A DNA stretch of 64,000 nucleotides, from contig NZ_CP017415.1 of NCBI RefSeq assembly GCF_001753245.1, positions 2,846,040 through 2,910,039 on the forward strand. Reading direction: 5' to 3'. Below are positions 24,581 to 29,092 of the stretch, in pieces. The notes beneath the pieces are model-generated. The model saw only the letters and a program-made list of their open reading frames with translations. It did no database searches and had not been told where the DNA came from. Source of the DNA: Acidihalobacter yilgarnensis. GTDB taxonomy: Bacteria; Pseudomonadota; Gammaproteobacteria; DSM-5130; Acidihalobacteraceae. The translations under genes and the position numbers were made by a program. Numbering within the stretch: position 1 is the stretch's first letter; the number at the start of each line of letters is the position of its first letter.

Positions 24581-25900
24581 TCAGAAGTAGTGTTCGAGCT
24601 GCAAGGAGTAACGATCACTGCGGTATGAATAAATGCCAAAGGTGGAATTTGCATGGGTATGCTGGTATTCGCCAACCAGATACCACCCCGTCGATAACCG
24701 ATACTGCGCACCGATAGATTCCAGATACCGGTCGTCCACCCTCGTTTTGCTTACCAGCGCCCCACCCGACAGACTAATATCGGGCGAATTGTAACGGCTG
24801 TGCTGATAACTCGCGTGCAAGAATATCTTTGTCCGCAATGTCGCCGGCCAATTAGCTCTCACATAGACTTCGTGGCGCGTCGGTGAGGCGCTATAAAACT
24901 GGTTACCGACATTCAAGTCCGCCCGATTATTCAACTCGACCTCGTAGCCGAGTCGCAAATCGAGTTGACTTGGCCTCCAGCGGGTTTGTATGCCCAGCTG
25001 CTGCTGCCCACCTGTAAGATAGGCGTAAGGCGCAATCCCGGTAATATGGCTATACCGATACCTCAGACGAACCGTCCAGGCATCACCCAGCGGGTGCCAC
25101 GCGCGCAGATCCAGCGAATTGAATTGCTCAAAGGCTGCGCCGTGCAAATAACTGTAATTCACATAACCGGCCACCTCTGTACTCCAGCCCGTCACCGGAC
25201 GGCGGTAGGCAAGCCCCAAGCGCAACAAAGTTTGATTGTAAGTATTCAATGATGGGTAGCTGACGTGATAAACCGTGCTGATCAATCTCAGGCCATGGTC
25301 GGGTGTCCCTTGTAGCTGACCGATCGCGCCTGCTAAAAATTGCGCGAAATACGAGCCTTGTCCGGCAGCCGCGATTAGGTTTGAACGCGACAATAACGAG
25401 ACGTTATTGTCATATCCGCCGCCCAGATTGGCAAAACCGACCCAGCGCGCAGCCCCGCGAACCGACTTGGGATTCAATCGAATAAGCTGCTCGTAAGCCA
25501 GAGCCTTGATTTTCTCGGAATGGGCCGAAGCTGCCGCCAGCTTGAACTCCGATTCAGCAGTCGCTTTTCGGCGCTCACTCAAGGCAATTAACCCAAGATT
25601 GTAATGCGCTAACGCCGCGAGCGCGGGCTCCCGACTTAGCGTCTCGAACTCGCTCTCTGCTTCGCGATAACGCCCCAACTTGAAATAAGTCGACCCCAGA
25701 TCGTAGCGCAGGTTGGTTGAATCTATGCCAGATTCGCGTGCCTTGAGGAAGGCAGACAGGGCAGCTTCATAGTCACCTAAGCGAAAAGCGGAAACCCCCT
25801 TCTCGAAGGCCGCAATCCCCGGAGATGCCTCCGCCGTGCCTATAGACAAGGCTAGGCAAATTGCAATTGCAACTGGTGCGAACTTGAACCCCGGTCGCAT
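24581..25900 (-). CDS. outer-membrane protein: TPR domain plus beta-barrel
   Basis: The 439-residue protein has a signal peptide (MRPGFKFAPVAIAICLALSI…, cleaved near AEAS), three or so TPR units (about 30-145, for example GVSAFRLGDYEAALSAFLKA and LRYDLGSTYFKLGRYREAE), and a C-terminal part (about 160-439) of alternating aromatic/hydrophobic strands ending in YSLQLEHYF, the terminal-Phe signature for BAM insertion. The layout resembles Slam-type (TPR plus DUF560) proteins, which help surface lipoproteins out, though it is somewhat shorter. I chose the ATG at 25900 with AGGGAG upstream. It is the last gene of the sigma-factor operon, so it may export or anchor the small secreted protein before it. 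Confidence 0.78.
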   Translation of the reverse strand: MRPGFKFAPVAIAICLALSIGTAEASPGIAAFEKGVSAFRLGDYEAALSAFLKARESGIDSTNLRYDLGSTYFKLGRYREAESEFETLSREPALAALAHYNLGLIALSERRKATAESEFKLAAASAHSEKIKALAYEQLIRLNPKSVRGAARWVGFANLGGGYDNNVSLLSRSNLIAAAGQGSYFAQFLAGAIGQLQGTPDHGLRLISTVYHVSYPSLNTYNQTLLRLGLAYRRPVTGWSTEVAGYVNYSYLHGAAFEQFNSLDLRAWHPLGDAWTVRLRYRYSHITGIAPYAYLTGGQQQLGIQTRWRPSQLDLRLGYEVELNNRADLNVGNQFYSASPTRHEVYVRANWPATLRTKIFLHASYQHSRYNSPDISLSGGALVSKTRVDDRYLESIGAQYRLSTGWYLVGEYQHTHANSTFGIYSYRSDRYSLQLEHYF

Positions 25901-26001
25901 CAAACACTCCCTGTGCAAGACGGAGAGGCGCCCGGGTCCGGGTGCCTCTCCTTAGTCGATTCGTTCATCCCTGTTTAGACTAAGCGCAAGCGTTCTTCAA
26001 C

Positions 26002-26436
26002 TCAATCTGTATCTACTTCTCTATCTTGCGGTGTCTGGGCGCTTTGTTGCGCCTGATTCATCAATTCCTGGGTCTGATTCTGGTGTTCCACCGACCTTGC
26101 CTCTTGGCTGGCGCTGGTAGCCTGCTGAGAAACTTCTGAGGGCTCCGCTGATCCACCTGCCTCCGAATGCCCATCCAGCCCTTGATGCTCATGCTCACCA
26201 TGTGCCAGAACATCTTGCGTAGCGCCATTGCTCGCGGGCAAGACAATCTCATGCTCAATGACGTCCTTGACATCTTGACTCGGACCTACAACGTTGATGG
26301 TGACATCTAGATCGTTGCCGGCGGCCCGCACCGGAAACGACTGGCTCATACCAATACAGAACAAGATCGCCGCCAGAGCGCCGATCCGTCCTTTTCGCCC
26401 GCGATGTTTTTTTATGTATGAAATTCCGTTCAGCAT
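26002..26436 (-). CDS. secreted small protein, His/Gln/Ser-rich tail
   Basis: I do not recognise a family. The 144-residue precursor begins with a basic N-terminus (YIKKHRGRKGRIG) and a signal peptide (ALAAILFCIGMSQSFPVRA) that cleaves near residue 39. The mature part starts with a beta-like section (DLDVTINVVGPSQDVKDVIEHEIVLP), followed by a low-complexity region with HGEHEHQGLDGHSE and a Gln/Ser/Ala-rich end. The His cluster could bind metal. It lies 32 bp after the anti-sigma gene and 101 bp before the TPR-barrel gene, all on one strand. Confidence 0.6.
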   Translation of the reverse strand: MLNGISYIKKHRGRKGRIGALAAILFCIGMSQSFPVRAAGNDLDVTINVVGPSQDVKDVIEHEIVLPASNGATQDVLAHGEHEHQGLDGHSEAGGSAEPSEVSQQATSASQEARSVEHQNQTQELMNQAQQSAQTPQDREVDTD

Positions 26437-26468
26437 TATCCCACGTCCATTCGCCCGGGTGTTGAGAT

Positions 26469-27110
26469 TCAAATATTGGACATCGCATTCGGGCCTCTTA
26501 CATGCACGCCAACTTGTATTTCACGCGCATATTGCCCGTATTGGACCTCTGCACGCAGCACACCGTGCCCGGTCCGCTCGGCAACCAACGGCAGGCTTAG
26601 CAAGTTACGCCCCTGCTTGAGCTTGCCGTGCCAGACAATCTCTCGCTCGCCGGGATGGCCGGCAACCTCGACGCCCACCGGTAACATAACGGTAAAACGA
26701 ACGCCATCTACCGGCTTGGAAGCATTGAACACGAGTCTGATCGTGTCCTTACCCTGTGCAAGCTGGACCATCGGTGTGGCGTTTTCCTGGGCTTGCCGCT
26801 GCACACCGATACCGATACCGATACCCGCCAGCAAGCTTGCCGCAATCGCGAGTCCGACCATACGTTGACGAATGGGCTTACGCGTCGGCGGCTGCCGGAC
26901 AGCGGTGGCGATGGCCCGTTCGGAAAACCCCTGACGCATGGGTGGCACTGGCAGTTTGCGCAGGTCGTTCCACACGCGGCGCTCCCAGCTCAAATGCTCA
27001 CGACAGGCCGGGCAGTAGGCCAAATGTCCATCCAGCTCGCGACGATCCTCCGAAGAGATCGTGCCATCCAGATACCGATCAAAACGCCTACGATAGACTG
27101 GGCAGTTCAT
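26469..27110 (-). CDS. membrane anti-sigma factor with zinc-finger domain
   Basis: The 213-residue protein begins with a zf-HC2 anti-sigma domain (GHLAYCPACREHL carries the His-x3-Cys-x2-Cys zinc site). It continues through a Pro/Arg-rich linker, a single transmembrane segment (about 85-105, MVGLAIAASLLAGIGIGIGV) and a periplasmic beta-rich domain (about 118-213). It would hold the cognate sigma factor at the membrane until a signal arrives. Its ATG overlaps the sigma gene's end by 23 bp. The periplasmic domain (VRFTVMLPVGVEVAGHPGER) resembles folds that sense surface proteins. The signal is unknown. Confidence 0.85.
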   Translation of the reverse strand: MNCPVYRRRFDRYLDGTISSEDRRELDGHLAYCPACREHLSWERRVWNDLRKLPVPPMRQGFSERAIATAVRQPPTRKPIRQRMVGLAIAASLLAGIGIGIGVQRQAQENATPMVQLAQGKDTIRLVFNASKPVDGVRFTVMLPVGVEVAGHPGEREIVWHGKLKQGRNLLSLPLVAERTGHGVLRAEVQYGQYAREIQVGVHVRGPNAMSNI

Positions 27111-27729
27111 CGGTCATCACCTCGTCCAAAAAATAGAGTTCCTTCTGGCCGACCTTGCGGGCCATCAGGCTGTCCTTAAGCGCGCGGCGCGCGCGGAACA
27201 AACGCGACTTCAGGGTGCCGACCGGCACGTCCAGGGTTTCCGCCAACTCCACCAGGCTGTAACCCTCGACGTCGTGCAACATCAGCACCGCTTTCTGCTC
27301 TTCGTTGAGTGCCTCCATGGCCTCCATGATATGGCCTTCGAGAAGTCCATGTTCGACGGAGGTCTCAGGGCCGGCCTCAGGGGAGGCCATACGGTCCCAC
27401 ACGCCCATGCAGCCCCCATCTTCGTCCGATTCGCCATGTTTATCGAGATGCCCCTGTGGGCTTCTCGCATGCCGCCGGCGTCCGTCGACGAATAAATTGT
27501 ACAAGGCACGCATTAACCAAGGCTTCAACACATCGATGCTAGCCAGCTCTGCCGACTTGGGATAAAGCTTGATCAGCAGATCCTGCACGAGATCCTCAGC
27601 ATCCTCCTGGTGCCCGGTAAAGCGATAGGCTACCCGGTACATTGTCTCGACATGAGGCGCGATCAGCGCCTCGAAGTCATCGGGCGGCAGCGGCCTGCTA
27701 AACCATTTGCTGAGTCGTTGACTGTTCAT
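27088..27729 (-). CDS. ECF-family RNA polymerase sigma factor
   Basis: The 213-residue sigma factor has region 2 (about 22-90: VETMYRVAYRFTGHQEDAEDLVQDLLIKLYP, WLMRALYNLFVDGRRR) and region 4 (about 145-195: LNEEQKAVLMLHDVEGYSLVELAETLDVPVG), separated by an acidic linker. It would direct transcription of its own operon in response to an envelope signal relayed by the membrane anti-sigma. I chose the ATG at 27729; a GTG directly before it is in frame too. The C-terminus is longer than usual, with ELYFLDEVMTDELP. The family subgroup cannot be set by eye. Confidence 0.92.
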   Translation of the reverse strand: MNSQRLSKWFSRPLPPDDFEALIAPHVETMYRVAYRFTGHQEDAEDLVQDLLIKLYPKSAELASIDVLKPWLMRALYNLFVDGRRRHARSPQGHLDKHGESDEDGGCMGVWDRMASPEAGPETSVEHGLLEGHIMEAMEALNEEQKAVLMLHDVEGYSLVELAETLDVPVGTLKSRLFRARRALKDSLMARKVGQKELYFLDEVMTDELPSLS

Positions 27730-27853
27730 CACCTACTGACACGACGGATACAACGAAAAGGTTCCACGGGCGAACACGCGCGTGATAGGCGATAGATTAT
27801 CTGGATTCAAGGATAGTTTGAACTGATTGATGTCCAGGCAAATAGTCGCGTGA

Positions 27854-29092
27854 TCAGAAACCCGTGTGCACGCTCCCCAGATAGGCATTTGCGGGATAGC
27901 CCTGCCGCTCCCAGGTCCCGGCGACCGGATGCCTCGTGGCGACGATACGATTTACCCATTTGACTGACTTGTAGCCATACATGGCAGGAACGACCAATCG
28001 CAGCGGGAATCCCCCTCTCGTGCTCAGCGGGGTTCCGGCGATCCCGTAAGCCAGCAACACGCCATCCGCGCGCGCCTGTTCAAGACTCAGACAATCCACG
28101 TAGACGCCATCTGCGGAATAGAAGACCAGATAGCGAGCATTCGGCAACAATCGCGCCTGCGCCAGCAGGTTATCCGTAGTCACCCCATCCCAGGGTACGT
28201 CGGGCACGCTCCACCCGGTGACGCAGTGGAAGGTTTTGCGCTCGCGCGTCAGCGTCAAGCGTCGGATTTCGTCTAGACGAAGCGTAGCGGGTTGCGCCAC
28301 CAAACCCTCGATCGCGAGCCGATACCCTACCGGCTCGATGCTCGGGAAAGCACCCGTATAGCTGTAGCGTTCGGGGAAGGCCCACTGTGCTGCAGCATCG
28401 CTACTGTCGATACCATCGCCGCTACCTGGCGCGCCGTCCATTCGACGCCGTCCGCCGACTAAGCCGAGAAAACCGAAACTCGCGGCCACCATCGATGCAC
28501 CCAGTGTAATGAAGCGGCGCCGCGTGAAATCGATACGCCAGTTCAGTGGGTGATCGGTCCGCTGAAAGGACACCGTGCGCAACAACGCATGTATCGTCAA
28601 CCAGCCCATGAGGCCGTAGGCGACCCAGCCATGCCAGCCGAAGGCAACGGCATTCCAGCGCACGGGGAAGCTCGCATCGAACCACAGCACATAACCGCTG
28701 ACGCCCAAAAACAGGCCGCCGGCGGAAACCAACGCCCAGTCGACCAGACGCACCCGCCGCAATAATCGCGGTGACGACAGCAGTGCCGTCATCAGGGCGA
28801 TCAGAAAGGCTGAACCCAGCCACACGTGCAGTGCGTAGATCCGCTGCAGCCAGGGCAGTAAAACGGCGTGCAAAGCCGGCAAGTAGATCGCTACGCCGCT
28901 CAGCATCAGCACGATGAACGACACAAGCAGGAAGACATGAGTCAAACGCAACGTTAACGGCCAGCTACGGCGTCGCAGCCAGTGGCCGAGCGCCGGCCAG
29001 TGCGCCGCCAAGGTCTTGTGGGCCAGCAATCCCACACCCAGCAAGGCGAAAGGCAGTAGCCCCCATAGATAAACAGGCGATGGCACGGTCAT
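27854..29092 (-). CDS. cytochrome b / molybdopterin-oxidoreductase fusion
   Basis: The 412-residue protein joins an N-terminal b-type cytochrome membrane domain to a C-terminal sulfite-oxidase-like domain. Residues 1-about 185 contain four to five transmembrane helices with candidate heme His in LRLTHVFLLV, IYALHVWLGS, FGWHGWVAYG and WLTIHALLR. A twin-Arg-like motif (FTRRRFITLGAS) precedes another hydrophobic segment, then the Oxidored_molyb domain (about 245-412) with Cys in FHCVTGWSVPDVPWDGV, the likely Mo ligand. MsrP and MsrQ are separate proteins; here similar parts are fused. Substrate unknown: sulfite, sulfoxides or protein methionine sulfoxide are options. The end is in a tight place before a divergent gap, with GAGGAAG before the ATG. 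Confidence 0.8.
   Translation of the reverse strand: MTVPSPVYLWGLLPFALLGVGLLAHKTLAAHWPALGHWLRRRSWPLTLRLTHVFLLVSFIVLMLSGVAIYLPALHAVLLPWLQRIYALHVWLGSAFLIALMTALLSSPRLLRRVRLVDWALVSAGGLFLGVSGYVLWFDASFPVRWNAVAFGWHGWVAYGLMGWLTIHALLRTVSFQRTDHPLNWRIDFTRRRFITLGASMVAASFGFLGLVGGRRRMDGAPGSGDGIDSSDAAAQWAFPERYSYTGAFPSIEPVGYRLAIEGLVAQPATLRLDEIRRLTLTRERKTFHCVTGWSVPDVPWDGVTTDNLLAQARLLPNARYLVFYSADGVYVDCLSLEQARADGVLLAYGIAGTPLSTRGGFPLRLVVPAMYGYKSVKWVNRIVATRHPVAGTWERQGYPANAYLGSVHTGF

What the first reader, a model, noticed from the sequence alone, without database searches (positions are those of the whole stretch)
24581..27729. ECF sigma, anti-sigma, secreted His-rich protein and TPR-barrel cassette
Four collinear genes look like a self-regulated surface-export unit: a membrane anti-sigma with a periplasmic domain, a small secreted low-complexity protein, and an outer-membrane barrel with TPRs, similar in layout to Slam translocators. 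The secreted protein is of unknown family and could be the cargo and the signal.
Basis: inference. Interest (0 to 1): 0.6.

Follow-up and report, generated by a model that had tools for sequence, protein, structure and literature searches.

The report
Self-regulated export-like unit with disordered cargo
Four neighbouring genes (a stress-type gene switch, its membrane-bound off-switch, a small secreted disordered protein, and an outer-membrane barrel distantly related to protein exporters) are inherited together in a range of environmental bacteria, and the switch appears to control other secreted proteins elsewhere in the genome, so they look like an unstudied surface-export circuit.

Summary
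The quartet is real: ECF sigma, zinc-finger anti-sigma, small secreted protein, TPR plus outer-membrane barrel. It is conserved: 47 of 56 strong-barrel loci hold all four genes; in six of the other nine the barrel is within 2.5 kb of a contig end. The secreted protein is not a His-rich family: it has a conserved ~30-residue head (45 of 49 held-out members found) and a variable, usually acidic, low-complexity tail. The barrel models as TPRs plus 14 strands. By profile it aligns full length with Slam barrels (99.4%; seven controls 1.5% or less), though the window protein has no Pfam SlipAM match. A GGAAC-N17-CGTGT site lies just before sigma. Five of seven such genome sites recur at matching features in both congeners: sigma, an unlinked head-bearing paralogue, two other secreted low-complexity proteins, a non-coding block. 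Best reading: an autoregulated sigma circuit making head-and-tail secreted proteins and a Slam-like barrel that probably exports or anchors them. Export and head-to-anti-sigma signalling are inferred. Six literature searches showed no description of it.

The parts
27739..27765 (-). ECF-type promoter GGAAC-N17-CGTGT, ending 6 nt before the GTG and 9 nt before the ATG of sigma (possibly leaderless mRNA; inference)
   Evidence: exact match; same arrangement in both congeners
27088..27732 (-). ECF sigma factor (GTG at 27732 or ATG at 27729)
   Evidence: Sigma70_r4_2 9.6e-16, Sigma70_r2 2.6e-11
26469..27110 (-). zinc-finger anti-sigma factor: cytoplasmic zf-HC2, one membrane helix (by eye), periplasmic all-beta (macroglobulin/Ig-like) domain
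   Evidence: zf-HC2 3.1e-9; family alignment; fold modelled on the relative L065
26002..26472 (-). small secreted protein: signal peptide (by eye), conserved head DLDVTINVV...IEHEIVLP, low-complexity Q/E/S tail; probable start ATG 26436
   Evidence: (head profile E 1.2e-9, but this head is one row of that profile)
24581..25918 (-). outer-membrane protein: signal peptide (by eye), TPR helices (residues ~33-154), 14-stranded barrel (159-444), remote Slam homologue

Best explanation
An autoregulated ECF sigma circuit controls a small set of secreted proteins with disordered tails and the outer-membrane barrel encoded with them. Sigma binds GGAAC-N17-CGTGT sites at its own operon and at unlinked genes. 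The membrane anti-sigma holds sigma in check and senses the periplasm through an Ig/macroglobulin-like domain. The locus protein and its paralogue are exported by Sec (no lipobox seen by eye), carry a conserved head and a disordered tail, and the Slam-like barrel, with its periplasmic TPR domain, most likely recognises the head and passes or anchors the tail at the surface. Shown here: conserved linkage, a promoter with conserved further sites, a confident barrel model and remote homology to Slam. Inferred: sigma binding to the sites, export by the barrel, what the tail does at the surface, and how the anti-sigma is switched off.
For: Linkage: 47 of 56. Three desulfobacterial loci (L026, L030, L032) keep the four genes in another order, barrel-sigma-anti-secreted. 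Head: among 3827 mechanical ORFs of 73 loci, 50 matched below E 0.2, 49 of them the locus gene and one a second copy in L075; 30 of the 50 were training rows. In two-fold cross-validation 45 of 49 held-out heads were found with one unrelated ORF. Promoter: GGAAC-N16..18-CGTG exact in 10 of 52 sigma upstream regions versus 2 of 1040 shuffles and 11 of 1040 random segments; with one mismatch 14 of 52 versus 55 and 63 of 1040 (near relatives included). Five of 7 N17 sites in G000 recur at the matching feature in G001 and G002: sigma; a second head protein, first seen through its promoter and then found by the head profile alone in all three genomes (E 1.1e-5 to 9.2e-7); two other secreted low-complexity proteins, one followed by a Dyp-type peroxidase (PF20628 3e-35 in G000); a conserved non-coding block. 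Barrel: pLDDT 92.8; hhalign barrel-only vs 6 Slams 99.4% over 272 columns, 97.3 and 96.7 with three Slams each; controls BcsC 0.0, reversed 1.5 and 1.4, three shuffles 0.1, an unrelated OMP 0.3. The BcsC control works: its halves find each other at 100%.
Against: No export was shown. Genome-wide counts of the promoter pattern are at or below the backwards-read control in G000 (16 vs 17), G023 (5 vs 8), about equal in G002 (11 vs 10) and G026 (9 vs 8), and clearly above it only in G001 (12 vs 4). Only position and conservation support the sites. 17 of 52 sigma upstream regions had no site even with mismatches, and 11 had only two-mismatch sites, which are as common in controls. Foldseek's top PDB matches are BcsC, a polysaccharide exporter, then OmpG and other porins, and 30 of 47 family members match Pfam BBP2_2, 'putative beta-barrel porin 2', more than match SlipAM (6), so a pore or sugar exporter is possible. 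G014 has sigma, anti-sigma and secreted gene but no barrel match in its genome with the window protein; L075/G005 has secreted gene and barrel but no anti-sigma match. So no single partner is obligatory. The two other secreted proteins do not significantly match the head profile (E 0.19-1.4; one of three copies of the PEV protein unlisted even at E 100).
Confidence: 0.5

Rival explanations
1. The secreted protein stays in the periplasm as a co-regulator of the anti-sigma (as RseB or CpxP do elsewhere, recalled), its charged tail sensing ions, pH or misfolded proteins. The barrel is only one of the envelope proteins under control and does not export it.
For: The secreted gene directly follows the anti-sigma in all 47 four-gene loci, even where the barrel is moved, and in G014, where no barrel was found. 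In a read-through model of anti-sigma plus secreted protein the head forms two strands, pLDDT block mean 81 at residues 281-290; 28 of the 50 VIA rows listed have alignments that run from the Ig domain to residue 274-292 (my count).
Against: The rest of the head is at 56-67 and the tail's own end reaches 70 in that model, so the hint is weak. L075 keeps secreted gene and barrel with no sigma or anti-sigma in about 5.9 kb on either side. An unlinked paralogue fits several cargoes better than one regulator.
Confidence: 0.25
2. A general envelope-stress regulon: protective hydrophilic proteins and a porin or polysaccharide channel are co-induced, with no direct contact between the parts.
For: The conserved sites include a Dyp-type peroxidase operon and other secreted proteins. 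BcsC is the top fold match and BBP2_2 porins the most frequent Pfam barrel match (30 of 47).
Against: Tight four-gene linkage across families and into desulfobacteria; a head that stays conserved while tails diverge; the barrel matches Slam and not BcsC by sequence profile.
Confidence: 0.2

Closest known systems
Slam / type 11 secretion system outer-membrane proteins (PF04575, DUF560)
   Same: Periplasmic TPR domain plus 14-strand barrel; barrel domains align full length by profile; Sec-secreted, non-lipidated cargo is known for one subgroup (PMC8406197, passages read).
   Different: Window protein has no SlipAM match; 6 of 47 family members match at E<=0.01, best 1.2e-4. The neighbouring secreted protein is a short head plus low-complexity tail, not a TbpBBD barrel cargo. 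Coupled to an ECF sigma; 'sigma' occurs 0 times in the main text of two T11SS papers (PMC12282271, PMC8406197).
Pfam BBP2_2 (PF10082), putative beta-barrel porin 2
   Same: 30 of 47 members match at E<=0.01, best 2.1e-7; L052 is over the cut-off (28.1 vs 23.7 bits).
   Different: Matches shown cover only the last strands (L052 342-426); the window protein is below cut-off (14.3 bits); TPR domain extra.
Cell-surface signalling (FecI/FecR/TonB-dependent transducer; recalled, one abstract start seen, PMC11637429)
   Same: ECF sigma, membrane anti-sigma and an outer-membrane barrel encoded together.
   Different: No TonB-dependent receptor in the quartet and no FecR domain in the window anti-sigma; barrel is TPR type.
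BcsC/PgaA-type TPR-barrel polysaccharide exporters
   Same: TPR plus barrel; BcsC is the top Foldseek match.
   Different: 14 strands here; PgaA described as 16-stranded (PMC8406197, passage); no profile similarity to BcsC barrels (0.0).
RcsF/outer-membrane-protein/IgaA surveillance (recalled, not from a call)
   Same: A flexible secreted protein, an outer-membrane barrel and an inner-membrane inhibitor with a periplasmic domain.
   Different: The secreted protein has no lipobox (by eye); the output is an ECF sigma; no threading shown.

Membership tests
Slam / T11SS (PF04575) | SlipAM domain over its curated cut-off | tested here: not met
   Window barrel has no SlipAM match at E<=1; none in its genome. 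6 of 47 family members match at E<=0.01.
Slam / T11SS (PF04575) | N-terminal periplasmic TPR plus 14-strand outer-membrane barrel | tested here: met
   AlphaFold2 model, pLDDT 92.8; strand count mine.
Slam / T11SS (PF04575) | Barrel homologous to Slam barrels at profile level | tested here: met
   99.4% over 272 columns; seven control comparisons at 1.5% or less; 97.3 and 96.7 with Slam subsets.
Slam / T11SS (PF04575) | Neighbouring cargo with a TbpBBD-type C-terminal barrel | tested here: not met
   Window secreted protein and seven relatives have no such domain in Pfam.
Slam / T11SS (PF04575) | Barrel-dependent movement of a protein across the outer membrane | not testable with these tools
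   Needs an experiment.
BBP2_2 porins (PF10082) | Profile match over the curated cut-off | tested here: not met
   Window protein 14.3 bits, cut-off 23.7; at least one relative passes (L052).
ECF sigma / zinc anti-sigma pair | Sigma regions 2 and 4 next to a membrane anti-sigma with zf-HC2 | tested here: met
   alignment.
ECF sigma / zinc anti-sigma pair | ECF-type promoter before the sigma gene (autoregulation) | tested here: met
   By sequence only.
Cell-surface signalling (FecIR type) | FecR-family anti-sigma and TonB-dependent transducer | tested here: not met
   No FecR in the anti-sigma, no TonB receptor in the quartet.

The most novel reading that the evidence does not exclude
The conserved head of the secreted protein is both the export tag read by the Slam-like barrel and the ligand of the anti-sigma's Ig-like domain, docking as added beta strand(s). 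The cell would thus read the export or surface state of its own disordered cargo and adjust sigma accordingly: an export-coupled sigma circuit with a dedicated regulon of low-complexity surface proteins.
Probability: 0.2. Interest if true: 0.8.

Novelty: new variant of a known kind. Interest (0 to 1): 0.6.

Why it matters
If the reading holds, the Slam/T11SS superfamily extends to an environmental branch with a new cargo type (short head plus disordered acidic tail) and a built-in ECF sigma control. It gives a concrete pair of tests (does the head bind the TPR domain, the anti-sigma domain, or both) and a conserved regulon to measure. How bacteria display disordered proteins at the surface and sense whether export works would become testable.

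Tried and rejected
A single-protein scan of genome contigs found nothing; the profile scan found 73 loci, of which those from L080 on are mostly short TPR matches. An idea that the head imitates a strand of the anti-sigma's own Ig domain (suggested when MAFFT misplaced head-only rows) failed: hhalign 9.5% over 16 columns. The two further secreted proteins of the regulon look head-like in one case by eye but do not match the profile, so I do not call them homologues. A first head picker (regex) missed 24 loci and mispicked two (L023, L039); I replaced it by a profile and recomputed tail charges. No recurring neighbour beyond the quartet: the largest flanking clusters span 8 of 55 loci. Rfam gave one sub-threshold CRISPR-repeat match and nothing at the conserved non-coding block. 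No Slam appeared among the 50 listed PDB or VIA rows; that does not exclude the family. The read-through model cannot show contacts because no coordinates are returned; one search is only a hint and had no control run. Alignments A9 and A10 were built and not folded. Literature: the searches (5 papers; 9; 7; 10 of 110 listed; 8 of 27; 12 of 26) listed no paper that I recognised, from titles and abstract starts, as describing this quartet; most subscription papers are not held, and supplements were not searched.
Full report
1. The observation. ORF listing and Pfam confirm four collinear minus-strand genes: ECF sigma, zf-HC2 anti-sigma, a small secreted protein without a known family, and a TPR protein with an outer-membrane barrel. 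They lie between soxXYZ (plus strand, beyond the barrel) and, upstream of sigma, a molybdopterin oxidoreductase with a sub-threshold cytochrome-b-like membrane part. 'His-rich' is overstated.

2. Conservation. In 37 relatives the anti-sigma was found in 6 genomes and the barrel in 8, some of the latter by short TPR matches; both are in the three genomes of the genus (own included) and in G023 and G026. A profile scan of named genomes gave 73 loci. I scored L023-L095: 56 have a barrel-profile match below 1e-25. In 44, sigma, anti-sigma, head-profile protein (E<=0.022) and barrel are all present; in 3 more (L076-L078) the secreted gene is there by eye but the head profile missed it: 47 of 56. 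Of the other nine, L031, L042, L044, L053 and L069 have the barrel within 1.3 kb of a contig end and L040 within 2.5 kb (contig ranges); L023 has anti-sigma and secreted gene about 5 kb from the barrel; L075 has no sigma or anti-sigma; L083 (a planctomycete, 376 aa) has none of the others. Three desulfobacterial loci have the order barrel-sigma-anti-secreted (L026, L030, L032). From the anti-sigma side, 42 of 369 class genomes match at 1e-8, a few only at the zinc-finger part, and 4 of 398 in a phylum sample at 1e-20, own genome included: the system is patchy. Of the 29 loci L096-L124, four come from genomes used for the profile or from the window's genus (L096, L097, L098, L100). In the other 25, sigma is present in 25; the head by profile in 19, and in the other 6 a signal-peptide plus low-complexity gene by eye, L120 with the weakest head; a same-strand barrel within the 1.5 kb held in 22. 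L101 and L107 show no barrel in the stretch held and L124 has a barrel on the other strand. Some of these genomes recur among L023-L079 (for example L108 and L061, by identical gene coordinates), so the two surveys are not independent.

3. The secreted protein. After a signal peptide (by eye) comes a head of about 30 residues, roughly DVT(I/M)xV(V/M)...IxLP, in several lineages followed by a helical-looking stretch. A head profile searched against 3827 mechanical ORFs hit 50 below E 0.2: 49 locus genes and a second copy in L075; 30 of the 50 had been training rows. Two-fold cross-validation found 45 of 49 held-out heads (23 of 24 and 22 of 25; missed L075, L050, L055, L070) and one unrelated ORF. 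Tails are low complexity; net charge is -10 or lower in 40 of 49, with a range of -90 to +10; the window's is mild, -15 and Q-rich. None of seven representatives has a Pfam family over its cut-off.

4. The barrel. The AlphaFold2 model (47 sequences) has mean pLDDT 92.8, pTM 0.74, helices 33-154 and 14 long strands within 159-444 (strand count mine). Foldseek ranks two BcsC structures first, then OmpG and other porins; VIA-align gives Z 20.1-21.1 to OmpG and CymA (3.1-4.2 A over 227-279 residues) and Z about 16-17 between the TPR part and designed TPRs and type III secretion chaperones. By Pfam the window protein has no SlipAM match; of 47 members, 30 match BBP2_2, 10 TPR_Slam and 6 SlipAM at E<=0.01. 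I took six SlipAM proteins over the cut-off from a search of 274 class genomes (27 with a match at 1e-3) and compared barrel-only profiles: 99.4% over 272 columns; BcsC 0.0, reversed profiles 1.5 and 1.4, three column shuffles 0.1, the regulon's other secreted OMP-like protein 0.3. Each half of the Slam set alone gives 97.3 and 96.7, and the two BcsC halves find each other at 100%, so that control is able to ring. Full-length comparison with a second, weakly SlipAM-like TPR-barrel set gave 99.9%. hhalign pair E-values are not calibrated; the contrast with the controls is what counts.

5. The promoter and regulon. A count of two-part words upstream of 52 sigma genes was topped by GGAAC-N17-CGTG and its one-base shift (11 each, maximum in five shuffles 5). 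Sites GGAAC-N16..18-CGTG are exact in 10 of 52 and have one mismatch in 14, against 2 and 55 of 1040 shuffles and 11 and 63 of 1040 random segments; 11 have two mismatches, no more than chance gives, and 17 none. Near relatives are among the 52. In the window the site is 27739-27765, so close to the start codon that the mRNA may be leaderless; sites with at most one mismatch at -32 to -36 occur in 17 of 52 (my count). G000 has 16 sites with N17-18 (control 17) and 7 with exactly N17; G001 12 (control 4), G002 11 (10), G023 5 (8), G026 9 (8). So counts alone mean little. But five of the seven recur at the matching feature in both congeners: (a) sigma; (b) a second secreted protein with the same head and a Q-rich tail, far from the locus. 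I first saw it through its promoter; the head profile then found it alone in all three genomes (the window's own head was one row). (c) A ~109-aa secreted protein followed by a Dyp-type peroxidase (Pfam tested in G000 only). (d) A secreted PEV-repeat protein followed by a ~267-aa secreted protein of no Pfam family. (e) A conserved AT-rich block without a clear ORF. A sixth (G000 3546606) has a possible counterpart in G001 (566840) that I did not examine; the seventh (2216237) was not compared. In G023 and G026 a further exact site lies at the end of the sigma gene, just before the anti-sigma start.

6. The anti-sigma. In the relative L065 the periplasmic part is all-beta with block-mean pLDDT 93-97 for residues 131-210; Foldseek's best matches are complement C3 chains (4.2e-6) and VIA-align's best are macroglobulin-type domains, Z up to 8.9, a common fold. 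In the same model, a read-through of anti-sigma and secreted gene (pTM 0.44), the head forms two strands with block means 67, 66, 81 and 56; the tail is at 48-54 over most of its length but 59-70 in its last 29 residues. 28 of 50 VIA rows run from the Ig domain to residue 274-292 (count mine). This fits head strands lying against the domain, but without coordinates or a control it is only a hint.

7. Interpretation. Shown: a conserved four-gene unit, an ECF-type promoter, conserved further sites before secreted low-complexity proteins, and remote barrel homology to Slam. Inferred: that sigma uses those sites, that the barrel exports or anchors the secreted proteins, and that the head reports to the anti-sigma. 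It should not be filed as T11SS, because the family model is not met by the window protein and the cargo type differs, but it may well work like one. Of two T11SS papers, passages only: PMC8406197 speaks of 14-stranded barrels and of non-lipidated cargo, PMC12282271 lists some soluble predicted cargo; neither has 'sigma' in its main text.

Noticed in passing
L145 4155-4733 (+), G000 3547754: Unlinked paralogue of the secreted protein with the same head, a Q-rich tail and its own GGAAC-N17-CGTGT site; conserved in both congeners (L191, L192).
   Followed up: yes
L143 1001-2398 (+): Small secreted protein with conserved C-terminus EARDIDND followed by a Dyp-type peroxidase, behind the same promoter; conserved in L200 and L203.
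   Followed up: partly
L141 1657-3006 (-): Secreted PEV-repeat protein plus a ~267-aa secreted protein without a Pfam family, behind the same promoter; conserved in L197 and L199.
   Followed up: partly
L144 995-1130 (+), L196, L198: Conserved AT-rich block of about 100 nt just downstream of the promoter with no clear ORF and no Rfam family: possible small RNA.
   Followed up: partly
window 27729-27765 and upstream of other sigma genes: Promoter so close to the start codon that the sigma mRNA may be leaderless, with similar spacing in 17 of 52 upstream regions (count mine).
   Followed up: no
L049 5002-5799: A secreted FecR-domain protein gene sits between the head gene and the barrel in a betaproteobacterial locus.
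   Followed up: no
window 27854-29092 (-): Molybdopterin oxidoreductase domain with an N-terminal, sub-threshold cytochrome-b-like membrane part, directly upstream of sigma.
   Followed up: no
L021 13910-14155 (-) (same as L075 12321-12566): A second, short head-bearing secreted protein in a genome whose locus has the barrel but no sigma or anti-sigma beside it.
   Followed up: no
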